From the NCBI RefSeq assembly GCF_900176645.1, contig NZ_FXAN01000043.1, positions 1 through 64,000 on the forward strand: 64,000 nucleotides of DNA, read 5' to 3'. The translations under genes were made by a program, and so were the position numbers. Shown piece after piece: positions 45,199 to 58,047 of this stretch. The notes below the pieces were generated by a model. It was given only the letters and a program-made list of their open reading frames with translations. It searched no databases and was not told the origin of the DNA. Source of the stretch: Burkholderia singularis (lineage in GTDB: Bacteria > Pseudomonadota > Gammaproteobacteria > Burkholderiales > Burkholderiaceae). Within the stretch, counting starts at the first letter, position 1. The number at the start of each line of letters is the position of its first letter.

Positions 45199-47556
45199 TT
45201 AGTTTTTGTCGGCCGATTGTTTAGCGATGCTTGCCATTTCCGTGCTCGCGTCGTGCGGCGTCGTGCGGCCGCAGACGCCGAAGCGCGCGAGCAGGGCGGC
45301 GATGCCGTCCGCGGGCACGGGGCGCGAGAACAGGAAGCCTTGCGCTTCGATCTGGCCGAGCGCGGCGAGCCAGGCGACCTGCTCTTGCGTCTCGGTGCCT
45401 TCGACAACCACCGTGAGCCCGAGCGCGCGTGCCAGATGCACGATCGACGACACCATGACGCAGACGTTGCGGTCGGTCGGCACCGCCTGGATGAACGAGC
45501 GGTCGACCTTCAGCGTATCGACCGAGAAGCGTTGCAGATACGATAGCGACGAATAGCCGGTGCCGAAATCGTCGAGTGCGATGCGAATGCCGAGCTTTTT
45601 CAGCGCGGCGATTTTTTCCGACACCAGTTCCGGATATTCCATCATCGCGGTCTCGGTAATCTCGATTTCCAGGCGGCGCGCTTCGATGCCCGTTTGCGCG
45701 AGCGCGTGCGCGATCGTCTCGATCAGGTCGCCGCGCCAGAACTGGACGGGCGAGATGTTGACGGCAAGCGTCAGCGTATCGAGGCCCTCGTCGCGCCAGT
45801 GCGCGAGTTGCTCACATGCGCTCTGGATCACGAAATCGCCGATCGGCACGATCAGCCCGGTTGATTCGGCAATCGAAATAAATTCGTTCGCCGAAATCAC
45901 GCCGTGTTCGGGATGATCCCAGCGCACGAGCGCTTCGAAGCCGGTAATACAGCGTTGCGCGAGATCGATCTTCGGCTGATACGCAAGGAAGAGTTGCTCA
46001 TCCGACAACGCGATGCGCAATTGTTGCTCCCATCGCATCAAATGATCGGCGCGATGCGACAGATGCGGCGCATAGAACTGATAGCAGTTCTTGCCCGCGT
46101 CCTTCGCGCTGTACATCGCGAGGTCGGCCTTTTTCAGCAGGTCGATTTCGCTTTCGTTCGCTACCGAATGCAGCGCGATGCCGATGCTTGCGTGCAGTAC
46201 GAACGTGCTGCCGCGCACGTCGAACGGCGCGGAGAACATCTGGATGATCGCCGCGGCGAGGCGCTCGGCGCGCCGCTCGACATGGTCGCCCTTGACCACG
46301 ACGACGAACTCGTCGCCGCCGATGCGCGCGAGCGCGCCCTCGTTGCCGACCGCGTCGGATAGCCGCGCGGCCGTCATTTGCAGCACGATATCGCCGGCAT
46401 TGTGGCCGAGCGTATCGTTGACGGTTTTGAAGTTGTCGAGATCGATGAACAGGAGCGCAAGCCGCGACAGGCTCGAGGCCTGCGCGACGTCGTTGCGCAA
46501 CCCGCGCAGCGTTGCATAACGGTTCGCGAGGCCGGTGAGCAGATCGTATTCGGCCAGTTGCGTCATTTCGCGCTCGCGGCCGAGCAGCTTGCCGATCAAG
46601 CCGGTCGCCACGCCGAAGAACGACAGCATCGCGAGCGTGATGAAGCTCGTCATCAGCAGATAGATGTTGCGCGTGTGGCGGTAGTCGGCGAATTCCTCGG
46701 CCTGCGACAGCCCCACCAGCACGCCGAGCGGATAGCCGTCGAGATGGCGATACGACACGATCCGCGCGATGCCGTCGATCGGATCGACATAGGCGCCCGA
46801 CGCGCGCTCCGGCGGCGAATACACGCCCGAGGCCGTGAATGCGCCGAGCGCCCGCTTGTTGGCGCCGGTGCGGCGCGCCAGTACGGCGCCGGTGTCCGAG
46901 ATCACGGCGATCACGCCTTCCTTGCCGATTGCCGCGTTGTTATAGAAGTCGCTCGTGAAGTAGTTCGGATCCTCGGATACGACGACGATTCCCGCGAACG
47001 TGCCGTCGGGGTGGTTTAGACGCCGCGTCATTTGCAGCGTCCAGCGGCCGGACACGCGGCCGAGCACCGGGCGGCTGATATAGAGCTGATCGTCGTTGCG
47101 TTGCGCGTGAAATTTGAAGTGCTCGCGATCGGACAGGTCGATGGGTTTGGGGTGCGCGTCGGCCGTACTCGAGATGAGCTTTCCGTGCGCGTCGATCAGC
47201 GACACCTGGATCAGCGTATCGCTCGGCACCACGCCTTTCTCGACCGTGTTCGCGAGATTGAAGTGCGCGGGCGATTTCTCGAACTCGTATTTGACGAAGC
47301 GGGTGATCTGGTCGACCTGATGGATCGCCTTGACCGTGTGCTGCTCGAGCGCGGCCGACAGGATCGCGGCCGACGCGGTGGCTTCGCGATAGGCGCCGTC
47401 TTTCTCGACGGACAGGCGCGCGACGATCACGACCCACAGCAGCACGAGCGCGAGCGTGCCGAGCAACGGAATCGCAAACAGCGCGCGGCGGCGCGACATG
47501 CGCTGCACGCGTACCGGTCTCCCGGTACGGGAGGCATGGGACCGAAACGGACTCAT
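45199..47556 (-). CDS. Membrane GGDEF-EAL protein with a Cache-type sensor
   Basis: A 785-residue c-di-GMP enzyme. Transmembrane helix ~26-47 is followed by a periplasmic double-Cache-like sensor (~50-290) and a second helix (~298-322). The GGDEF domain has an intact signature GGDEF (413-417), DLDNFKTVND and a normal core. The EAL domain has EAL at 541-543 (GFEALVRWDHP), the metal/catalytic DDFGTGYSSLSYL, and VVVEGTETQEQ. Both active sites look complete, so it could make and break c-di-GMP; such composites often act mainly as phosphodiesterases. The signal sensed is unknown, and the gene stands alone. Confidence 0.93.
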   Translation of the reverse strand: MSPFRSHASRTGRPVRVQRMSRRRALFAIPLLGTLALVLLWVVIVARLSVEKDGAYREATASAAILSAALEQHTVKAIHQVDQITRFVKYEFEKSPAHFNLANTVEKGVVPSDTLIQVSLIDAHGKLISSTADAHPKPIDLSDREHFKFHAQRNDDQLYISRPVLGRVSGRWTLQMTRRLNHPDGTFAGIVVVSEDPNYFTSDFYNNAAIGKEGVIAVISDTGAVLARRTGANKRALGAFTASGVYSPPERASGAYVDPIDGIARIVSYRHLDGYPLGVLVGLSQAEEFADYRHTRNIYLLMTSFITLAMLSFFGVATGLIGKLLGREREMTQLAEYDLLTGLANRYATLRGLRNDVAQASSLSRLALLFIDLDNFKTVNDTLGHNAGDIVLQMTAARLSDAVGNEGALARIGGDEFVVVVKGDHVERRAERLAAAIIQMFSAPFDVRGSTFVLHASIGIALHSVANESEIDLLKKADLAMYSAKDAGKNCYQFYAPHLSHRADHLMRWEQQLRIALSDEQLFLAYQPKIDLAQRCITGFEALVRWDHPEHGVISANEFISIAESTGLIVPIGDFVIQSACEQLAHWRDEGLDTLTLAVNISPVQFWRGDLIETIAHALAQTGIEARRLEIEITETAMMEYPELVSEKIAALKKLGIRIALDDFGTGYSSLSYLQRFSVDTLKVDRSFIQAVPTDRNVCVMVSSIVHLARALGLTVVVEGTETQEQVAWLAALGQIEAQGFLFSRPVPADGIAALLARFGVCGRTTPHDASTEMASIAKQSADKN

Positions 47557-47792: not shown

Positions 47793-48695
47793 TCAGCGCA
47801 AGCGGATGCGGCCGTCGATGACCGTCACGCTCGCGCCGCCGATCCAGATCCTGCCGGCGTCGTATTCGACGCCGATACGGCCGTCTCGTCCGATCGCGGT
47901 GCCTTGGCGGGCCGTGTAGCGCGAGCCGGGCGGGCGCCCCGCATCGGCGAGCAGGCCGGCGATCGCCGCGTTCGCGCTGCCGGTGACGGGATCTTCGCCC
48001 GCGCCGAATGCGTCGTCGAGCATCAGGCAGCGCACCTCGAACGTCGCCGGGCCGCCCGCCGGATGCGGCCCATATACCGCGACGCCGTGCGTGTCCATCG
48101 CGGCGGCGAGCGGCGCGAGCGCCGCGTAATCGGGGGCGAGCGTCAAGCAGTCGGCCGCCGATGCGAGCCGCACGACGAGCCATGGCGCGCCGTTGTCGAC
48201 CGCCTGCGGCGGCATGCCGGCGTAATCGATCGACTCGGTGCGCAATGCGGCCGCGAGCGCCGGATAGTCGCGCTCGGGCAGCGGTGTGACGCGCGCGGGC
48301 GGTGCGGCGAATGCCCAGCAGCCGTCGCGCTCGGCCAGCTCGACGAGCCCCGCGCCACATTGCTGGACGAGCTTGCCGGGCGTTTTCGGCTGCCCGCCGG
48401 CTTCGAGGAACGCATGCGCGGTGCCGAGCGTCGGATGGCCGGCGAACGGCAGCTCGCCGCCCGGCGTGAAGATCCGCACCCGGTAGTCGGCGCCGGGATC
48501 GGTCGGCGCGACGATGAAGGTGGTCTCGGACAGGTTTGTCCAATGCGCGATCGCGCGCATGGCCGCGTCGTCGAGCGCATCGGCGTCGAACACGACGGCG
48601 AGCGGATTGCCCTTGAACGGTGTCGACGTGAACACATCGACCTGCTTGAAGCGCACCGTCGCGATGGCGCCCGGTGCGACGGTGCGCGCGGCCAT
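47793..48695 (-). CDS. PhzF-family isomerase
   Basis: A 300-residue cytosolic protein of the PhzF fold (two diaminopimelate-epimerase-like halves). Visible family features are the N-terminal FKQVDVFTSTPFKGNPLAVVFDA, WTNLSETTFIV (with the conserved catalytic-type Glu), GELPFAGHPTLGTAHAFLE and EDPVTGSANAAIAGLL. PhzF itself isomerises a phenazine precursor; most homologues act on unknown small carboxylates. There are no phenazine genes here. It is the last gene of the MocR-divergent cluster, 4 bp after ridA. Confidence 0.9.
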   Translation of the reverse strand: MAARTVAPGAIATVRFKQVDVFTSTPFKGNPLAVVFDADALDDAAMRAIAHWTNLSETTFIVAPTDPGADYRVRIFTPGGELPFAGHPTLGTAHAFLEAGGQPKTPGKLVQQCGAGLVELAERDGCWAFAAPPARVTPLPERDYPALAAALRTESIDYAGMPPQAVDNGAPWLVVRLASAADCLTLAPDYAALAPLAAAMDTHGVAVYGPHPAGGPATFEVRCLMLDDAFGAGEDPVTGSANAAIAGLLADAGRPPGSRYTARQGTAIGRDGRIGVEYDAGRIWIGGASVTVIDGRIRLR

Positions 48696-48699
48696 CGCG

Positions 48700-49167
48700 T
48701 TATGCGTCGCCGGCGACTTCGGCGATCAGTTCGATCTCGACGCACGCGCCAAGCGGAATTTGCGCGACGCCGAACGCCGAGCGCGCATGCTTGCCGGCGT
48801 CGCCGAACACTTCGGCGATCAGCTCGGACGCGCCGTTCGTGACCAGATGCTGTTCGGTGAATTCGAGCGTCGAATTCACGAGGCTCATCAGCTTGACGAT
48901 CCGCTTCACGCGGTTCAGATCGCCCGTGTGCGCGTGCAGCGTCGCGAGCAGGTCGATCGCGACCGCGCGCGCGGCGGCCTTGCCGTCTTCCGTGCCCAGA
49001 TCGTGACCGAGCTTGCCGGCCCACACCTTGCCGTCCTTTTTCGCGATGTGGCCGGACAGATACACCGTGTTGCCGCTTTGCGCGCTCATCACATAGGCGG
49101 CGGCCGGCGCGCCGGCGGCGGGCAGTTCGATTCCGAGTTCCTTCAGTTTGTCGTAGACGTTCGCCAT
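48700..49167 (-). CDS. RidA/YjgF-family protein
   Basis: A 155-residue protein of the RidA superfamily, which hydrolyses reactive enamine/imine intermediates made by PLP enzymes. The key Arg129 (KHARSAFGVAQIPLG) and the acidic Glu in CVEIELIAE are both present, so deaminase activity is plausible. Position directly behind a PLP aminotransferase gene fits a clean-up role. The sequence is longer at the N-terminus than canonical RidA and belongs to a sub-branch with an N-terminal VYDKLKELGIELP. Confidence 0.9.
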   Translation of the reverse strand: MANVYDKLKELGIELPAAGAPAAAYVMSAQSGNTVYLSGHIAKKDGKVWAGKLGHDLGTEDGKAAARAVAIDLLATLHAHTGDLNRVKRIVKLMSLVNSTLEFTEQHLVTNGASELIAEVFGDAGKHARSAFGVAQIPLGACVEIELIAEVAGDA

Positions 49168-49257
49168 GGCGTTGCTGTCCTTTCTGTCAATCGTAACAAT
49201 GTGAATGGCTGAGTGAAGCCGTCCGCCGGTTGCATGAAGCAGGCGGACGGCGGCCTG

Positions 49258-50439
49258 TCACAGGCGTTCGCGCAGCAGCTTGCCGAGCCGCGCGACGCCT
49301 TCTTCGATCCGCTCGGGCGGCACCGTGACGAACGACAGCCGCAGCGTGTTCTGCTGCGCGTCGTTCGCGAAAAACGGCGCGCCCGGCACGAAGGCGACAT
49401 GATTGGCCACCGCGGCGTCGAGCAGCTGCATGCTGTCGATCCGCGCGGGCAATTTCACCCAGATGAACATCCCGCCTTCCGGACGGTTCCAGCTCACGCC
49501 TGGCGGCATATGCCGCGCGAGCGACGCGAGCATCGCGTCGCACTGCGCGGCGTAAAGCTGGCGGATGGCCGGGATGTGCGTGTCGAGGAAGCCATCCTTG
49601 ATCACTTCGTATGCGATGCGCTGCGTGAGCGACGGCGTATGCAGGTCCGTCGCCTGCTTGGCCTGCACGAGCTTGAAGTGCAGCTCCTCGGGCGCAATGA
49701 TATAGCCGATCCGCAAACCCGGCGCGAGCACCTTCGAGAACGTGCCGAGATGGACGATATGCTCGGGCGCCATCGACAGCATCGTCGGCAGCGGCTCGCC
49801 CGCGTAATTGAGCGCGCCGTAGGGATCGTCCTCGAGCACCGGAAACGGGCTTGTCTGCGCGAGCGCGGCGAGCGCGCGGCGGCGCTCGACGGGAAGACGC
49901 CGGCCGGTCGGGTTCTGGAAGTTCGGCTGCGCGTACAGAAGACGCGCGCCGCGGGTCAGCTCGGGTGTCAGCGCGTCGGGCAGCAGGCCGGCGTCGTCGG
50001 TCGGCACCTGCACGTAGTGCGGCTCGTACAGCGAGAACGATTGCAGCGCGCCGAGATAGGTCGGCGTCTCGACGAGCGCGCGGCAGCCCGGATCGACGAG
50101 CGCCTTGCCGAGCAGATCGAGCGCTTGCTGCGAGCCCGTCGTGACGAGCACTTGCGTCGTGCGCACGCGGTAGCGCTCGGCGATCCATTCGCGCAGCGGC
50201 AGAAAGCCCTCGGTCGCGCTGTATTGCAGCGCGGCGCCGGGAGCGTCGCGCAGCACGCGATCGGCGGCCTCGCGCATGCGTTCGGCCGGGAACGTCGCGG
50301 GCGCGGGCAGACCGCCCGCGAACGAGATTACTTCGGGGCGCTCGGTCACTTTCAGGATTTCGCGGATCGCCGAGCTGGTGAGCTTGCGCGCGCGTTCGGA
50401 CAGGGTCCAGCGGGGCGGCTTGAGATCGCTCGAATTCAT
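49258..50439 (-). CDS. PLP-dependent aminotransferase (fold type I, class I/II)
   Basis: A 393-residue enzyme of the 2-aminoadipate/LysN-like aminotransferase group. The PLP-binding Lys236 is in TFSKVLAPGLRIGYI. Other features are VLVTTGSQQALDLLGK, NFQNPTGRRLP (Asn and Tyr contacts), and EDDPYGAL with the ring-binding Asp. The C-terminal Arg for the substrate carboxylate lies in LRLSFV. The likely substrate is an alpha-amino acid with 2-oxoglutarate, but specificity cannot be read. Neighbouring RidA and EamA genes suggest amino acid turnover coupled to export. Confidence 0.9.
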   Translation of the reverse strand: MNSSDLKPPRWTLSERARKLTSSAIREILKVTERPEVISFAGGLPAPATFPAERMREAADRVLRDAPGAALQYSATEGFLPLREWIAERYRVRTTQVLVTTGSQQALDLLGKALVDPGCRALVETPTYLGALQSFSLYEPHYVQVPTDDAGLLPDALTPELTRGARLLYAQPNFQNPTGRRLPVERRRALAALAQTSPFPVLEDDPYGALNYAGEPLPTMLSMAPEHIVHLGTFSKVLAPGLRIGYIIAPEELHFKLVQAKQATDLHTPSLTQRIAYEVIKDGFLDTHIPAIRQLYAAQCDAMLASLARHMPPGVSWNRPEGGMFIWVKLPARIDSMQLLDAAVANHVAFVPGAPFFANDAQQNTLRLSFVTVPPERIEEGVARLGKLLRERL

Positions 50440-50500
50440 GTGTCTCCTCGTTCGGTATCGTAGTGAATGGGATGCAAGGAAGCGATTATCGCTCGCCGGA

Positions 50501-51409
50501 TCAGCCCGCGCGAGCCGGCAGCGGTGCGGTGGTGATCGTGGTGCGACGGCCGAGCATGACGGTGGCGATCACGGCGGCGGCGAACAGCCACGTCGACGGC
50601 GCGACGGTCTCGCCGAAACAGAGCGCCGAAAACGCGATCGTGAAGAAGATTTGCAGCAGTTGCACTTGCCCCACGCGCGCGGTGCCGCCCATCGCGAGCG
50701 CCGCGTACCACGCGAAGAAGCCGATGAGCTGCGAGAACAGCGTCACGTAGCCGAACGCGAACCACACGCGCGGCGATATGGGCTGCGGATGCGCGACGTG
50801 GTGCGTCCACGCGAGCCAGCCGACGGGCAGCACGAGAAACGGCGCGGACACGACGAGCGCCCAGCAGATCACCTGCCAGCCGCCCATCTCGCGCGCGAGC
50901 CGCGCGCCTTGCGCGTAACCGAGCGCGCCGAAGCCCACCGCGCCGAGCATCAGCAGATCGCCCGCTTGGAACGTGCCGCCGCCGTCGCGCAGCGCGAATG
51001 CGACGACGATCGCGCTGCCCGCGAGCGCGCATGCCCAGAATGCTTTCGACGCCCGCTCGTGCGACAGCCACGCCGCATACACCGCGACGAAGAGCGGCTG
51101 CAGTCCGCCGACGACCGCACCGTGCGATGCGGGCACGGTTTTCATCGCCCAGGCGGAAAGCACCGGGAACGCGATGATCACGCCTGCCGCCGTGATGCCC
51201 AGACTTTTGAGCTGCGCGCGGGTGGGCAGGGCTTCGCGGCGCAGCGCGAGCAGCAGCGCCGCCGGCACGGCGGCGACAAGTGCGCGGCCCAGGCCGTTCA
51301 GAAGCGGGTGGAGTTCGGTGACGGCGATGCGCGTCATCGGCAACGTGAGACTGAAGATCATCACGCCGATGAGGCCGAGCAGCATACCGCGGGTTTCGCG
51401 TGAATCCAT
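50501..51409 (-). CDS. EamA/DMT-family transporter
   Basis: A 302-residue inner-membrane protein with ten helices in two EamA halves (GVMIFSLTLPMTRIAV ... and GFGALGYAQGARLAREMGGWQVI ...). The family includes amino acid and metabolite exporters (RhtA, YdcZ types). It is third from the divergent promoter side in a five-gene run with a VOC protein, aminotransferase, RidA and PhzF, which suggests export of an amino compound, or uptake of one. Confidence 0.9.
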   Translation of the reverse strand: MDSRETRGMLLGLIGVMIFSLTLPMTRIAVTELHPLLNGLGRALVAAVPAALLLALRREALPTRAQLKSLGITAAGVIIAFPVLSAWAMKTVPASHGAVVGGLQPLFVAVYAAWLSHERASKAFWACALAGSAIVVAFALRDGGGTFQAGDLLMLGAVGFGALGYAQGARLAREMGGWQVICWALVVSAPFLVLPVGWLAWTHHVAHPQPISPRVWFAFGYVTLFSQLIGFFAWYAALAMGGTARVGQVQLLQIFFTIAFSALCFGETVAPSTWLFAAAVIATVMLGRRTTITTAPLPARAG

Positions 51410-51452
51410 CGAGGCGGGTCCTTATGGAGGGCGGGTTGCGGGGCGGTGCGCG

Positions 51453-52139
51453 TCAGCGCAGCGTGCGCATGCCTGCCGGGGTTTCGAATTCGGCAACGAG
51501 CGCGGGCGCGTCGCCCGCGTCGATATCGATCAGATGCGCGGCGCGCAGCCACGCGAGCTGCTCGCGCAGCACGTGCGCGTGAGGGTGCGCGCCGTTGAGC
51601 TTCCTCAACGCGACGCCGCCGTGCGGCAGCGTATCGGACGGATGGCGCGTGTCTTGCCATTGGATCAGCGACGGCAGCACGCCGTCGCCCGCGTATTGCC
51701 ACGCGGGCAGCGCGCCGTCGTCGGGAACCGTCAGCTGCCAGTGGAAATCGCCGCGCGACATCGGCACGACGCGCGCGATGCGCGCGGGATATTGCCGCTG
51801 CCACCGGCCCAGCTCGCATGGCCGCTCGACGCGCACCACCCAGTGCGCGAGATACGGGCCATGCTCGAGCCGCGCGCGGGTGGCCGGATCGTCGAGCCCG
51901 AAGAGCCGGGGCCGCGGCTGTTCGCCGGCAGCGGGCGGCGGCGCGTCGGGATCGGGCGCGATCACCTCCAGATACGCGCCGCCCCACAAGCCGAACAGAC
52001 GGTTGTGCGTGCGCATCGACGCATGCGCGCCGCCGCCGGCGGGCTCGATGCCGAGCGTGTCGGCGACATATCGGGTGCCTTCGTCGAGTGTGCGCGCCGC
52101 GACGACGAGATGATCGAGTGTCAGGGGATGAGCAGCCAT
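51453..52139 (-). CDS. VOC-family (glyoxalase-like) protein
   Basis: A 228-residue protein of the glyoxalase-like PF13468 type. It begins LTLDHLVVAARTLDEGTRYVADTLG, where His is a usual metal ligand, then GGAYLEVIAPDPDAPPP, where Glu is a second ligand. The C-terminal half is atypical. Such proteins may be lyases, dioxygenases or binding proteins; none is proven for this branch. It is the first gene of the cluster divergent from the MocR regulator, and its start MAAHPLTLDHL at 52139 is well supported. Confidence 0.85.
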   Translation of the reverse strand: MAAHPLTLDHLVVAARTLDEGTRYVADTLGIEPAGGGAHASMRTHNRLFGLWGGAYLEVIAPDPDAPPPAAGEQPRPRLFGLDDPATRARLEHGPYLAHWVVRVERPCELGRWQRQYPARIARVVPMSRGDFHWQLTVPDDGALPAWQYAGDGVLPSLIQWQDTRHPSDTLPHGGVALRKLNGAHPHAHVLREQLAWLRAAHLIDIDAGDAPALVAEFETPAGMRTLR

Positions 52140-52357
52140 GAATTGAAACGGAATCGGAAAAACGGAATCGGTTTGGCGGATGCCGGTTGGAACATGCGCG
52201 CGGCCTAGGCATGCGGCTTGGCGGATGGCGCGTGCGCCAGGCCGTTGCGCGCGCGGCGCCGCGATCTTGTCGATTCGCCGTGCCGTGCTTGGCTCGCGTC
52301 TTCCGGGTGTCTTTGAGGCGAGCGTGCCGCCGGCTGCGCATATCATCGACCCGACAC

Positions 52358-52418
52358 ACTGTAATCGTGCTGACCGGCACAGTAACGGTACAATCGATGC
52401 AATAATTTTCTGTACAGT
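52358..52418. promoter_or_regulatory. Candidate MocR operator
   Basis: Repeats of an ACTGTAATCG-like motif lie just before the regulator: CTGTAATCGTGC (52359), ACAGTAACG (52379), GGTACAATCGATGC (52387) and TGTACAGT (52411). GTACA and TGTAC form an inverted pair around the -10 area. Their closeness to the start at 52438 suggests autoregulation; the divergent gene starts 220 bp away. Confidence 0.5.
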
Positions 52419-52437
52419 TCGAGGTTGGAGATCCGCG

Positions 52438-53892
52438 ATGTCCACCGTCCCGCTTGAGCAGATCCCGGCGCCGCACGATACCGCGACGCTCACGCTCGTC
52501 GACCAGCTCGTTCAATGGGCGCGCCGCCGAATCGATGAGCGCGTGTTCCGGCCCGGCATGCGCATGCCGTCGATCCGCAAGCTCGCGCTCGACAAGAGCG
52601 TGTCGCGCTTCACGGTCGTCGAGGCTTACGAGCGGCTCGTCGCGCAGGGCTATCTCGATTCGCGCCGCGGGTCGGGCTTTTACGTGCGCGAGCGCGCGGC
52701 CGGGCAGCCTGCCGTCGCGCTGGCGGGTGGCGCGGATGCGCCGCCCGCGCATAACACGATCGATGTCGTCTGGCTGCTGCGCAACATGCTGCATACGGTC
52801 AGTCCGGAAAAGGGGCCGGGGCTGGGCTATCTGCCCAGCCGCTGGCTCGACGGCGAGCTGATCGGGGGCGCGTTGCGCGCGCTCGGCCGGCAGGCCGGCG
52901 CGCAGATGCTCGGCTTCGGCTCCGCGCAGGGTTTTTTGCCGCTGCGCCAGCAATTGCAGACGCGGCTTGCCGAAATCGAGATCGGCGCGACGCCCGAGCA
53001 GATCGTGCTCGTGTCCGGCATTACGCAGGCGATCGATCTGATCGCGCGTCAGTATGTCGGCGCCGGCGATGCGGTGATCGTCGGCGATCCGGCGTGGTTC
53101 CAAATGTTCGGCCGTTTCGCGTCGCAGGGCGCGCAGCTCGTCGGGATGCCGTATACCCCCGACGGCCCCGATCTCGACGCGCTCGAGCACCTCGTGCAGC
53201 TTTGGCGCCCGAAAATGCTCGTGATCAATTCCGTGCTGCAGAACCCGACGGGCACGTCGCTGTCGGCCGCGCAGGCGTTCCGGATCCTCAAGCTCGCGGA
53301 AACCTATGATTTTCTCGTCGTCGAGGACGACGTTTATGGCGATCTATGCGCGCCGAACTATCCGGCCACGCGCCTGGCGAGCCTCGATCAGCTGAAGCGC
53401 GTGATTTTCCTGGGCAGCTACTCGAAGACGCTCGCGCCGAATCTGCGGGTCGGCTATATCGCGTGCGCGCCGGAGCGTGCGACGGTGCTGACCGATCAGA
53501 AGATGCTGGCCGGGCTGACCACGCCCGAGCTGAACGAGCGCGTGCTGTACAAGGTGCTCACCGAAGGGCATTACCGCCGCCACGTCGAACGGCTGCGCGC
53601 GCGGCTCGACGGCGTGCGCGACAAGACCGCCCGAATGATCGAGCGCGCCGGCATGCGGCTGTTCGCGATGCCGGCGGCCGGCATGTTCCTGTGGGCCGAC
53701 ACGGGCGTCGATTCCGACGCGCTCGCGGCGGCCGCGCACGAGGCGGGCTTCCTGCTGACGCCGGGCAGCCTTTTTTCGCCGAAGCAGTCGCCGTCGACAT
53801 GGACGCGCTTCAATGTGGCCAATTGCGGCGATCCGGCGCTGCCCGCGTTCCTGTCGCGTTATCTGGACAGCGCGGGGCGCCGCATGCCGTGA
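52438..53892 (+). CDS. MocR/PdxR-type regulator (GntR DNA-binding domain fused to aminotransferase domain)
   Basis: A 484-residue regulator. Residues ~15-85 form a GntR winged helix (RVFRPGMRMPSIRKLALDK, FTVVEAYERLVAQGYLDSRRGSGFYV). Residues ~110-480 form a fold-type-I aminotransferase-like domain with PLP Lys330 (SYSKTLAPNLRVGYI), EDDVYGDL and LQNPTGTSL. MocR proteins bind PLP and amino compounds to control neighbouring genes rather than catalyse. The start at 52438 follows GGAG at 8 bases; a much longer frame is rejected. It is divergent from the VOC-EamA-aminotransferase-RidA-PhzF run, which it probably controls. Confidence 0.93.
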   Translation: MSTVPLEQIPAPHDTATLTLVDQLVQWARRRIDERVFRPGMRMPSIRKLALDKSVSRFTVVEAYERLVAQGYLDSRRGSGFYVRERAAGQPAVALAGGADAPPAHNTIDVVWLLRNMLHTVSPEKGPGLGYLPSRWLDGELIGGALRALGRQAGAQMLGFGSAQGFLPLRQQLQTRLAEIEIGATPEQIVLVSGITQAIDLIARQYVGAGDAVIVGDPAWFQMFGRFASQGAQLVGMPYTPDGPDLDALEHLVQLWRPKMLVINSVLQNPTGTSLSAAQAFRILKLAETYDFLVVEDDVYGDLCAPNYPATRLASLDQLKRVIFLGSYSKTLAPNLRVGYIACAPERATVLTDQKMLAGLTTPELNERVLYKVLTEGHYRRHVERLRARLDGVRDKTARMIERAGMRLFAMPAAGMFLWADTGVDSDALAAAAHEAGFLLTPGSLFSPKQSPSTWTRFNVANCGDPALPAFLSRYLDSAGRRMP

Positions 53893-54082: not shown

Positions 54083-55981
54083 ATGACTCAGCAAACCATG
54101 AGCTTTCAGGCGGAGGTCAAGCAACTCCTCCACCTGATGATCCACTCGCTTTACAGCAACAAGGAAATTTTCCTGCGCGAACTCGTGTCGAACGCGTCCG
54201 ACGCCGCTGACAAGCTCCGTTTCGAGGCTCTGGAAAACAACGCGCTGTACGAGAACGATCCGAACCTGCGTATCCGCATCGCATTCGACAAAGCCGCGCG
54301 GACGATCACGATCGACGACAACGGCATCGGCATGAGCCGCGACGAGGCGATCGCGAACCTCGGCACGATTGCGCGCTCGGGTACGAAGGAATTCTTCTCG
54401 AAGCTCTCCGGCGACCAGCAGAAGGATGCTGCGCTGATCGGCCAGTTCGGCGTGGGCTTCTACTCCGGCTTCATCGTCGCCGACAAGATCACCGTCGAGA
54501 CCCGCCGCGCGGGGCTGCCCGCGGCGGACGGCGTGCGCTGGGAAAGCGCGGGCGAGGGCGACTTCTCGATCGACACGATCGAGCGCGCCGCGCGCGGCAC
54601 GACGATCACGCTGCATTTGCGCGACGGCGAGGACGAGCTGCTGTCGGCCTACCGGCTGAAGTCGATCGTGCAGACATACTCGGATCACGTCGCGCTGCCG
54701 ATCCTGATGAAGAAGGAAGAGTGGGATCAGGAAAAGGGCGAGATGGTCCAGAAGGACGAAGACGAGACCGTCAATCAAGCCAGCGCGCTGTGGACCCGCG
54801 CGAAAAGCGACATCACCGACGAGCAGTATCAGCAGTTTTACCAGCACCTCGCGCACGACCATCAGGACCCGCTCGCGTGGACGCACAACCGCGTCGAGGG
54901 CCGCAGCGAGTACACGCAACTGCTGTACGTGCCGTCGCATGCGCCGTTCGATCTGTGGAACCGCGATTATCGCGGCGGCCTGAAGCTGTACGTGAAGCGC
55001 GTGTTCATCATGGACGACGCCGAGCAATTGTTGCCGCAATATCTGCGTTTCGTGAAAGGCGTTGTCGATTCGTCCGATCTGCCGCTCAACGTGTCGCGCG
55101 AAATCCTGCAGGAAAGCCGCGACGTGAAGGCGATCCGCGAAGGCGTGACCAAGCGTGCGCTGTCGATGCTCGAGGAACTCGCGAATGCGCAGGACGACGC
55201 CGGTCGGGAAAAGTACCGCACGTTCTGGCGCGAGTTCGGCCAGGTGCTCAAGGAGGGCGTGGGCGAAGATCACGCGAACCGCGAGCGGGTCGCGAAGCTG
55301 CTGCGTTTCGCGTCGACGCACGGCGACACCGACGAGCAAAACGTGTCGCTCGCCGATTACGTCGCGCGCATGAAGCCCGAGCAGACCAAGATTTATTACG
55401 TGACGGCCGATACGTGGCAGGCCGCGAAGAACAGCCCGCATCTCGAGGTGTTCCGCAAGAAGGGCGTCGAGGTGCTGCTGCTGAACGACCGTGTTGACGA
55501 GTGGATGCTGTCGTTCCTGCACGAGTTCGACGGCAAGCCGCTCGCGAGCGTGGCGCGCGGCGATCTCGATCTCGGCGCGCTGAACGACGAAGAGAAGAAG
55601 GCCCAGGAGCAGACCGGCGAGGCGTTCAAGCCCGTCGTCGACAAGATCAAGGAAACGCTTGGCGACAAGGTCAAGGACGTGCGCGTCACGTTTCGCCTGA
55701 CCGATTCGCCGTCGTGCCTCGTTGCCGACGACAACGACATGAGCGGCTATCTGCAACGGATGCTGAAGGCCGCCGGCCAGAAAGCGCCGACCTTCCAGCC
55801 GATCCTCGAAGTGAATCCCGAGCATCCGCTCGTCAAGGCGCTGAAGACCGATGCGGCCGATTTCGGCGACTGGTGCCACCTGCTGTTCGAGCAGGCGATG
55901 CTTGCCGAGGGCGGCGCGCTCGAGGACCCGGCGAGCTTCGTCAAGCGGACCAACGCACTGCTGTTGTCGCGCGCGCTCTGA
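54083..55981 (+). CDS. htpG: Chaperone protein HtpG (Hsp90)
   Basis: A 632-residue ATP-dependent dimeric chaperone. The GHKL ATP-binding N-domain is complete: [15 protein letters not shown] (Asn and Asp contacts), [28 protein letters not shown]. It is followed by the middle domain ([20 protein letters not shown] and [10 protein letters not shown]) and the C-terminal dimerisation domain. Like all bacterial forms it lacks a charged linker and the MEEVD tail. A heat-shock promoter lies upstream. The stop overlaps the next start (TGATG), coupling it to ubiC. Confidence 0.97.
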
Positions 55982-56688: not shown

Positions 56689-57164
56689 TGCTGCGCGGCT
56701 TTCCTCCAGTCGTGTCTGCCGATACGCATACGCTGATTCTCGGCAGCTTTCCCGGCGAGGCATCGCTTGCCGCCACGCAGTATTACGCGCATCCGCGCAA
56801 TCAGTTCTGGCGTTTGCTCGGCGCGGTGCTCGGCGAGCCGGGGCTGCACGATTTACCGTATGAAGCGCGCCTCGCGCGCGTGCTGGCGCACGGTTTCGGC
56901 ATCTGGGACGTGCTTGCCGCATGCCATCGCGAGGGCAGTCTCGACGCGGCGATCCGCAATGCGCAGCCGAACGATTTCGACGCGCTGCACGAAGTGGCGC
57001 CCAAGCTCGCGAAGGTCTGCTTCAACGGCAAGACGGCCGGGCGCTTCGAACCGGTGATCGCCGCGGCCGGTTACGACACGCTCGTTCTGCCGTCGTCAAG
57101 CCCGGCGAATGCGATGTTGTCGTTCGAGCAGAAGCTGGCGGTTTGGCGGGGAATCGCCGGCTGA
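56688..57164 (+). CDS. DNA-deoxyinosine/uracil glycosylase (UDG superfamily)
   Basis: A 158-residue base-excision repair enzyme of the hypoxanthine-DNA glycosylase-like branch. Motif 1 is LILGSFPGEASL, followed by YYAHPRNQFWRLL, the catalytic-region helix and the final SSSPANAMLSFEQKLAVW (Ser-Pro-Ala motif 2). It removes deaminated bases such as hypoxanthine or uracil; the exact preference is not readable. The start overlaps the ubiC stop. It is followed by an AT-rich gap. Confidence 0.88.
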   Translation: MLRGFPPVVSADTHTLILGSFPGEASLAATQYYAHPRNQFWRLLGAVLGEPGLHDLPYEARLARVLAHGFGIWDVLAACHREGSLDAAIRNAQPNDFDALHEVAPKLAKVCFNGKTAGRFEPVIAAAGYDTLVLPSSSPANAMLSFEQKLAVWRGIAG

Positions 57165-57588
57165 GCGGTTGTTCCGGCGAGTTGCCGCTGCGCGATGCGC
57201 TTGCGCGGGCAGCGGCAACGGCGCGGCTGGCACGCAAATAGGCGTGGCTCGAACAGCATTCGATATAAATAAATCGGCATTAGCGGAATGATGCTGAAAT
57301 ATTCACGAAAATCTATCTCCCGGAGCAACGTTATTTGCGAGTGCGTGCCGCTCGGTGGCGGTGTTCGTCATTTCACGACACTGTACTATGGTCGAAATTG
57401 GTGAATGTCGATTCGATTAATTTAAATAGATATCTTTGTTGTCACCGATTTTGATGTATTTTAAAAATCGGCTGTGCTTGATTTTCATTTTCAAGAGGTG
57501 ATTGTTTGCGGCCATAATTCAGGGATTTATGGCTTATCTGAAATCGGGCGTGTGATTATCATTCTGCGATGTAATTCAGGGGAACTAT
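57165..57588. other. AT-rich region in front of the orphan gene
   Basis: About 420 bp with no gene. From about 57250 the DNA becomes strongly AT-rich, unlike the flanking core genes. It contains T/A-rich promoter-like sequence and a good ribosome site (CAGGGGAACTAT) just before 57589. It is consistent with acquired DNA. Confidence 0.55.
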
Positions 57589-58047
57589 ATGTCGACGGCA
57601 GTCAATATTTATAGTCCGAGTGAGCAACTTTTTCTTTCGGTTCAAAACGATGGCGTAAGTGTTTTTTTGCCCATTTTCAGTGCTCAGGCATCGATATGGT
57701 GGATCGACAACTTTCCTGCCAGTGCCAATGATATAGGGCCGGGTTTTATTTCGATCATACGTTTTCTCGACAGTGTTAGCGCTCGATCGTTCAACCTGTT
57801 CGCCGATGTCGGTCTGTTGCAAACAATAGGCAGCGCACCGCTTGGCTTGTCCGAATCGAGCGCGGTTGTTTTCCGCATTGGGGGGATCGCCATCGACGCA
57901 AACCGCCCCATTCGGCTGAATGGAGTCGATGATGTGTCGATCGGCGCTGATACGGTTAACATTAGCCCATCGCCGATTAACCCATCGCCGCTTCTCATCA
58001 AGACAGAAAGCATTGCACCTTGGGTCGTCTCATACGCGTCGCTTTGA
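57589..58047 (+). CDS. AT-rich orphan protein of unknown function
   Basis: A 152-residue protein not recognised as any family. It lacks a signal peptide, has no cysteine, and is rich in Ser, Ile, Val, Asn and Phe in short alternating strands (SPSEQLFLSVQNDGVSVFLP, FRIGGIAIDANRPIRLNGV), suggesting an all-beta fold. An NISPSPINPSP stretch lies near the C-terminus. Codon use is far less GC-biased than in neighbouring genes, pointing to recent acquisition. The ribosome site is good. It is isolated, with no linked partner. Confidence 0.75.
   Translation: MSTAVNIYSPSEQLFLSVQNDGVSVFLPIFSAQASIWWIDNFPASANDIGPGFISIIRFLDSVSARSFNLFADVGLLQTIGSAPLGLSESSAVVFRIGGIAIDANRPIRLNGVDDVSIGADTVNISPSPINPSPLLIKTESIAPWVVSYASL

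What the first reader, a model, noticed from the sequence alone, without database searches (positions are those of the whole stretch)
47793..53892. MocR-controlled module: VOC protein, EamA carrier, PLP aminotransferase, RidA and PhzF
A MocR regulator is divergent from five co-directional genes with gaps of 4-90 bp. Together they could take an amino compound through transamination, enamine clean-up, ring or double-bond isomerisation and export or import. The combination of a glyoxalase-like protein with PhzF and RidA under a PLP-sensing regulator does not match a pathway I know, and is the best candidate in this window for an undescribed metabolic system.
Basis: inference. Interest (0 to 1): 0.7.

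Follow-up and report, generated by a model that had tools for sequence, protein, structure and literature searches.

The report
Regulated amino-acid clean-up gene module
Six neighbouring Burkholderia genes form a real, anciently conserved unit with its own DNA switch that probably exports and deaminates surplus or harmful amino acids and mops up reactive by-products; the kind of unit has been predicted before, but what it acts on is unknown.

Summary
A MocR regulator (52438-53892, +) is divergent from VOC, EamA, LysN-type aminotransferase, Rid1-type imine deaminase and PhzF genes (52139-47793, -), with gaps of 43, 61, 90 and 4 bp. It is a genuine unit. MocR, aminotransferase and Rid were complete in 35 of 37 same-genus genomes and in 73 of 99 loci examined; 70 of these 73 also hold htpG. 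A multi-box operator lies in the divergent gap: all 120 loci that a genome scan returned for its two-box core pattern have mocR directly downstream, and the window's genome has one perfect copy of the core box. The interpretation needs changing. VOC, EamA and PhzF are dispensable; VOC was lost twice within Burkholderia. Other lineages carry different parts at the same place: an AlaXM-like tRNA-editing protein, LysE-type exporters, glutathione transferase, DUF2917, once a threonine dehydratase. This fits an amino-acid overflow and reactive-imine damage-control module better than a linear pathway. MocR regulons joining DMT transporters, aminotransferases, GloA-type lyases and PhzF proteins were already predicted in print (PMC5320631, PdxQ group), so it is a new member of a known kind. 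Substrate, co-transcription and regulation are untested.

The parts
52438..53892 (+). MocR regulator: GntR-type winged helix plus aminotransferase-like domain, PLP lysine K330 (role by family knowledge)
   Evidence: Pfam GntR 2.7e-13 and Aminotran_1_2 6e-31; K330 nearly invariant in 69 sequences
52358..52419 (.). Operator region: ACTGTAATCG (52358-52367), CACAGTAACGGTACAAT (52378-52394), CTGTACAGTT (52410-52419)
   Evidence: Enriched words upstream of mocR in 76 loci; 120 of 120 loci carrying the two-box core pattern have mocR directly downstream; one match per locus in 35 of 35 same-genus loci; coordinates. The first box was seen in the sequences but not scanned for on its own.
51453..52139 (-). 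VOC-superfamily (Glyoxalase_3) protein, 228 aa
   Evidence: Pfam Glyoxalase_3 3.1e-39; AlphaFold2 model mean pLDDT 93; weak structural matches to 3p8a, methylmalonyl-CoA epimerase and HPPD
50501..51409 (-). EamA/DMT-superfamily carrier, probably an amino-acid exporter (direction inferred)
   Evidence: Pfam EamA, two repeats, 1.7e-25
49258..50439 (-). LysN-type class I aminotransferase, PLP lysine K236 (role by family knowledge)
   Evidence: Best solved relatives are T. thermophilus alpha-aminoadipate aminotransferase 2egy (1.4e-105) and aminotransferases 1x0m, 3aov, 1wst; S23, R26, K236, R367 nearly invariant in 75 sequences
48700..49167 (-). Rid-superfamily imine/enamine deaminase, Rid1 type
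   Evidence: Solved relatives include PA0814 (9bk9) and ACIAD3089 (9bkb), both Rid1 by PMC5619798; best hit is an uncharacterised protein, 3d01; R129 and E144 nearly invariant in 90 sequences
47793..48695 (-). PhzF-family isomerase-like protein with the catalytic residues kept (residue roles recalled)
   Evidence: Pfam PhzC-PhzF 9.8e-59; relatives 1ym5 and Pseudomonas PhzF; E57, H87, D235 nearly invariant in 43 sequences
54083..55981 (+). htpG, usual neighbour downstream of mocR (context, not claimed as part)
   Evidence: Present in 70 of 73 core loci
45199..47556 (-). GGDEF/EAL protein with dCache domain, neighbour downstream of PhzF (context, not claimed as part)
   Evidence: Pfam EAL, GGDEF, dCache_1; present in 52 of 73 core loci

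Best explanation
It is a MocR-controlled module for relieving amino-acid overload and reactive-imine damage. The core is a PLP-type MocR switch, a broad LysN-type aminotransferase and a Rid1 imine deaminase, usually with an EamA exporter. Proposed working: an amino compound, or its adduct with PLP, is sensed by the aminotransferase-like domain of MocR bound to the divergent operator, and the operon is switched on. EamA exports the amino compound. The aminotransferase removes its amino group. Rid1 hydrolyses leaked enamines or imines before they inactivate PLP enzymes. VOC and PhzF, the latter an add-on of Burkholderia and its nearest genera, process the resulting keto or enol acid. Elsewhere add-ons from the same toolbox take that place: a second exporter, AlaXM-like tRNA editing, GST. 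Shown: gene families, conserved unit, dedicated conserved DNA element, exchangeable accessories. Inferred: every chemical step, the inducer, binding of MocR to the element, the export direction and co-transcription. A weaker sub-guess is that the substrate belongs to the serine/cysteine (2-aminoacrylate) group.
For: Conserved core with two gene orders (AT-Rid and Rid-AT), in 73 of 99 loci examined. The operator pattern is confined to the mocR upstream region: 120 of 120 loci returned by the scan, one match in each of 35 same-genus loci, and one perfect core box in the window's genome against control-level weaker matches. Accessories in other lineages are damage-control or efflux genes: AlaX-like (tRNA_SAD), LysE and GST by Pfam, the AlaX-like protein nearest to AlaXM though below its cut-off, and threonine dehydratase PRK06110 at 538 bits against a cut-off of 317. 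The LysE proteins are closest to cysteine/O-acetylserine and homoserine/threonine exporters, below cut-off. Rid1 proteins deaminate several amino-acid imines, and RidA and Rid1 proteins rescued a Salmonella ridA mutant grown with serine or cysteine (PMC5619798, passages). Catalytic residues of the aminotransferase, Rid and PhzF are nearly invariant.
Against: No experiment and no expression data. LysN-type aminotransferases are known for aminoadipate, leucine and aromatic amino acids rather than serine (recalled), so a serine/cysteine substrate fits the core enzyme poorly. The dehydratase is in 1 of 73 core loci, the AlaX-like gene in 9 (a tenth in part), LysE in 10. Burkholderia has its AlaX-like gene elsewhere, in 25 of 25 same-genus genomes searched. 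EamA proteins can be importers, and EamA is missing in 9 of 73 core loci. The Rid gene stands without any other queried gene in 15 of the 99 loci, so it has a role of its own. DUF2917 has no known function, and VOC and PhzF have no assigned step.
Confidence: 0.5

Rival explanations
1. Vitamin B6 homeostasis module: MocR of the PdxQ type senses PLP, and the DMT carrier and enzymes handle B6 vitamers or PLP adducts.
For: PdxQ regulons contain DMT or LysE transporters, PLP aminotransferases, GloA-family lyase and PhzF-type proteins, and the authors suggest COG384 might act in PLP metabolism (PMC5320631 section 11). The MocR lysine K330 is kept. In L160 the Rid gene is followed by a gene that reads like pdxY (by eye).
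Against: The PNPOx_N genes of this genome, the kind of PLP gene named for PdxQ regulons, lie on other contigs, and the genome has only one perfect core operator box. Of the accessories identified by Pfam or NCBIfam, none is a B6 enzyme.
Confidence: 0.2
2. Catabolic pathway for a specific amino compound: carrier imports, aminotransferase deaminates, Rid, PhzF and VOC finish the breakdown.
For: Fixed order in Burkholderia, with Rid and PhzF nearly touching in 35 same-genus core loci (gap -20 to 7 bp by tblastn ends), and catalytic residues kept. Other MocR regulons serve taurine, GABA and ectoine use (PMC5320631, passages and section 15).
Against: Three of the five proposed genes are missing in part of the core loci. 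No oxidoreductase or CoA-type gene was seen among the six genes of the window unit. AlaX-like and GST accessories do not fit a nutrient pathway.
Confidence: 0.2
3. Old synteny around htpG without a shared function: the genes stayed together because the region rarely rearranges.
For: htpG and the GGDEF/EAL gene are conserved neighbours as well (70 and 52 of 73).
Against: Gene order within the module changes while its core content stays (AT-Rid and Rid-AT). The GGDEF neighbour was not found in the g35, g27 and g48 core loci whereas Rid and AT stay. The DNA element upstream of mocR is conserved and unique.
Confidence: 0.1

Closest known systems
PdxQ-group MocR regulons (Suvorova and Rodionov 2016, PMC5320631; passages and sections 10, 11, 15 read)
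   Same: MocR regulator with DMT-superfamily transporter, PLP aminotransferase, GloA-family lyase and PhzF-type protein named among the members of the group's regulons
   Different: No PNPOx-type gene on this contig, a Rid1 deaminase in the core, operator tied to one locus; whether this Burkholderia locus is in their tables was not seen (supplement not readable)
Rid genes clustered with PLP enzymes (Niehaus 2015, PMC4433059; passages read)
   Same: Rid genes (RidA, less often Rid1) beside aminotransferase and other PLP-enzyme genes, thought to quench 2-aminoacrylate-type imines
   Different: Here a LysN-type aminotransferase under MocR, plus exporters
Yersinia pestis y3555-y3550 cluster (PMC7221256; outline and section 6 read)
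   Same: Aminotransferase, transporter and functional Rid deaminase in one transcript
   Different: Aromatic/aspartate-type aminotransferase, Na+/H+ antiporter and a PAS-domain regulator; no MocR, PhzF or VOC in the section read
MocR and the cio cluster of Pseudomonas pseudoalcaligenes (PMC8567248; passages read)
   Same: MocR divergent from a cluster with several aminotransferases, thought to act as its repressor
   Different: Cyanide-resistance cluster with nitrilase; PhzF and EamA do not occur in the text, Rid was not looked for

Membership tests
PdxQ-type MocR regulon | MocR regulator with DMT/LysE transporter and PLP aminotransferase | tested here: met
PdxQ-type MocR regulon | Regulates a PLP-metabolic gene (pdxO, pdxO2, pdxH) | tested here: not met
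   PNPOx_N (PF01243) genes are on contigs C103, C69 and C80, not C56; the core operator box is perfect only at 52378. A diverged site or another PdxO family cannot be excluded.
PdxQ-type MocR regulon | Groups with PdxQ regulators on the MocR tree | not testable with these tools
   Supplementary tables of PMC5320631 not readable here
MocR subfamily | GntR domain plus fold-type-I aminotransferase-like domain with PLP lysine | tested here: met
Rid1 subfamily | Sequence relatedness to Rid1 proteins and conserved Arg/Glu of imine hydrolases | tested here: met
   9bk9 and 9bkb hits, Rid1 assignment in PMC5619798, R129 and E144 (equivalence to RidA Arg105/Glu120 recalled)
LysN-type aminotransferase | Sequence similarity and the Ser20/Arg23 substrate pair of T. 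thermophilus LysN (role recalled) | tested here: met
   Alignment; S23 and R26 nearly invariant
LysN-type aminotransferase | 2-aminoadipate transaminase activity | not testable with these tools
   No assay
PhzF isomerase family | Fold family and catalytic Glu/His/Asp (roles recalled) | tested here: met
Phenazine biosynthesis locus | Other phz genes beside phzF | tested here: not met
   None among the eight genes scanned around it; the rest of the genome was not searched
VOC superfamily, Glyoxalase_3 | Domain match and fold | tested here: met
Metal-dependent VOC enzyme | Two-His, two-carboxylate metal site | tested here: inconclusive
   H10 invariant, E58 and H99 nearly invariant, E or D at 219 in most rows (by eye); geometry not examined

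The most novel reading that the evidence does not exclude
A dedicated, modular resistance system against a toxic or misincorporated amino acid. One MocR sensor and operator run export, deamination and imine quenching, and lineages plug in translation proofreading (AlaXM), conjugation (GST) or chemical isomerisation (PhzF, VOC) at the same site: a metabolic counterpart of a defence island for amino-acid poisoning.
Probability: 0.2. Interest if true: 0.65.

Novelty: new member of a known kind. Interest (0 to 1): 0.4.

Why it matters
If right, it gives a testable setting for Rid1 deaminases and for PhzF and Glyoxalase_3 proteins without a known function: genes under one sensor with a defined DNA element. 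It would also link tRNA proofreading and amino-acid export to PLP damage control in a large group of bacteria, and it names the operator needed to find the inducer.

Tried and rejected
Considered and rejected: phenazine biosynthesis (no phz neighbours among the eight genes scanned); VOC as an essential enzyme of the unit (two losses in the genus; the G010 remnant is weak, E 0.007); a wider MocR regulon in the genome (the three weaker matches, each with 3 mismatches, compare with two for the reversed control; L172 was opened but told nothing); function from the VOC fold (the 50 Foldseek hits shown are generic VOC folds with 8-17% identity; no sequence match in the PDB at E 1). A sigma-70 promoter scan found none (0.8 expected by chance) and terminator-like sites were at chance level (5 against 4.8), so transcription units remain open. 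Leads that went nowhere: Castellaniella lysN fitness data (PMC12915299, passages; orthology not shown) and Pseudomonas putida fitness modules (PMC10949508, passages). Library searches for MocR/PhzF/EamA, Rid gene context, AlaX+Rid+EamA, aminoadipate/RB-TnSeq, canavanine/MocR, AlaX/MocR/LysE, LysN and PhzF+RidA+EamA: apart from PMC5320631 I saw no description of this unit in the listings; most listed papers were not opened, and the supplement of PMC5320631 could not be read.

Limits of the counts: 35 of the 73 core loci are one genus, and loci were chosen by hits to VOC, aminotransferase or Rid. The search covered 274 genomes rather than 300. The list of nearly invariant residues (97% threshold) dropped sequences covering under 85% of the query, aminotransferase hits under 50% identity and any with a stop. 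Queries written as minus-strand references without the first codon (Rid, aminotransferase, EamA, PhzF in the family and genome searches) lacked the start Met.
Full report
The observation. The five minus-strand genes are separated by 43, 61, 90 and 4 bp. Pfam confirms the families; NCBIfam passes its cut-off only for PhzF among the six, so no finer equivalog name is given to the others. In this genome mocR has matches of 29-31% identity at five other places besides the module's own aminotransferase, none of them close.

The organism. The window lies in a 5.54 Mb genome of 135 contigs. Several same-genus contigs have the same lengths as named Burkholderia contigs, for example 3,550,762 bases, B. 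anthina chromosome 1. The genus is therefore taken as Burkholderia; the species was not identified. Other genera are known only by the tool's labels (g27, g35 and so on; f8 for another family).

Conservation inside the genus. A VOC search of 61 related genomes found full-length orthologues in 34 of 37 same-genus genomes, including the window's own. Of the three misses, G033 and G010 keep the rest of the module with a VOC remnant, and G031 is 82% complete and showed only a 44%-identical aminotransferase paralogue. MocR, aminotransferase and Rid are together in 35 of 37; one more is cut by a contig end. Identity to the window protein is about 91-97% for Rid, 88-98% for the aminotransferase and 89-99% for MocR, but about 65-94% for VOC and 68-96% for PhzF. 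The core is under the tightest constraint, the accessories are looser.

Conservation outside the genus. The aminotransferase has matches at E 1e-60 or better in 154 of 200 family genomes. The Rid protein was found at E 1e-45 in 22 of 250 order genomes. In the class sample 7 of 274 had it at E 1e-25: the window's own, two of the same order, and four outside the order with only 43-50% identity. I fetched neighbourhoods and annotated them by tblastn. Of 99 loci examined (the window, 97 fetched earlier, one of them an empty placeholder, and L307), 73 carry MocR, aminotransferase and Rid together. In these 73, htpG is present in 70, EamA in 64, VOC in 55, the GGDEF/EAL gene in 52, PhzF in 44, DUF2917 in 11, LysE in 10, GST in 10, AlaX-like in 9 (a tenth, L138, only in part) and the dehydratase in 1. 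Within the 73, PhzF is confined to g1, g44, g37, g34 and g49. In g27 and g48 the order is mocR|(VOC)-AlaX-(LysE)-EamA-Rid-AT-GST. DUF2917 follows mocR in five of five g35 loci, g31, one of two g39, one of two g41 and three f8 loci. One f8 locus (L153) has a threonine dehydratase, over its NCBIfam cut-off. Of the 26 loci outside the count, 15 hold the Rid gene with none of the other queried genes, showing that Rid1 also works without this module.

The operator. Upstream of mocR in 76 loci the words ACAGTA, ACTGTA, GGTACA and CCGTTA are enriched about 14 to 31 times over the surrounding sequence. Each of the 120 holds one site, and in all 120 mocR begins 8-148 bp further on, median 13 (the first 80 alone gave 8-139, median 12). 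The 80 titles shown are Burkholderia, Paraburkholderia, Caballeronia, Trinickia and one Burkholderiales MAG. A relaxed pattern occurs exactly once in each of 35 same-genus loci, 640,538 bases in all. In 73 core loci the relaxed first box was found upstream in 68. The other five (L107 and four g35 loci) show diverged forms by eye, and the second box is weak (2-3 mismatches) in L100, L153, L155, L159 and L168. In the window's genome only 52378-52394 matches the core box perfectly; three further sites have 3 mismatches, against two for the reversed control. The regulon appears to be this locus. No sigma-70 promoter was recognised.

The proteins. The aminotransferase is closest to Thermus LysN and archaeal-type multi-substrate aminotransferases; the pair aligned with LysN Ser20/Arg23 (role recalled) is nearly invariant. 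The Rid protein is Rid1-like: PA0814 and ACIAD3089 are Rid1 and deaminate several imines, but not iminoarginine, and Rid1 proteins rescued a ridA mutant (PMC5619798, passages). PhzF keeps its catalytic residues. VOC gave a confident model with only generic VOC relatives, so its reaction is open.

How it most likely works. A core of aminotransferase and imine deaminase under a PLP-type sensor, usually with an exporter-type carrier, plus lineage-specific parts that mostly belong to damage control or efflux, points to relief of amino-acid overload or toxicity rather than to a nutrient pathway. The serine/cysteine sub-guess rests on the dehydratase, the AlaXM-like protein, the nearest relatives of the LysE proteins (the last two below cut-off) and the serine/cysteine phenotypes of ridA; the LysN-type enzyme speaks against it. 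I give the general model 0.5.

Against print. PMC5320631 (passages and sections 10, 11 and 15 read) predicted MocR regulons linking PhzF-type proteins with DMT transporters, and PdxQ regulons with aminotransferases and GloA-type lyases. The present locus lacks the PNPOx-type gene named for PdxQ. Searches of the library for this combination listed no other description that I recognised. I therefore call it a new member of a known kind.

Noticed in passing
L068 8969-9046 and L307 8063-8149: Two separate VOC losses within Burkholderia: G033 keeps only the last 28 residues, G010 only about the first 28 (E 0.007), with mocR, eamA and the rest present.
   Followed up: partly
L157, L158, L170 (genus g36, genomes 1.7-2.1 Mb) and L152 (1.2 Mb): The Rid1 gene is kept in small genomes with no other queried module gene in the 18 kb fetched and no aminotransferase match at 1e-60 (G070, G071, G092, G108), suggesting a housekeeping role of its own.
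   Followed up: no
G000:C102:3789-4502; L299 1495-2226: Burkholderia has an AlaX-like gene outside the module in 25 of 25 same-genus genomes searched; in 19 where it and the VOC gene lie on one contig they are about 77-103 kb apart (positions). In L299 its neighbours read like a globin and an unrelated protein (by eye).
   Followed up: partly
L113, L114, L115, L137-L142, L154: A GST gene follows the aminotransferase gene in all ten g27/g48 core loci.
   Followed up: partly
L109, L110, L111, L112, L117, L143-L145, L155, L156, L159: A DUF2917 (PF11142) gene lies next to mocR on the module side in 11 core loci; Pfam-checked in L110, L117 and L159, the rest by tblastn; function unknown.
   Followed up: no
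window 57000-57999: GC falls to 0.51 against 0.61-0.72 in the 13 kb before it, beyond htpG.
   Followed up: no
window 52140-52357: About 218 bp between the operator and the VOC start, which would give the operon a long leader if transcription starts near the operator; no Rfam match there.
   Followed up: no
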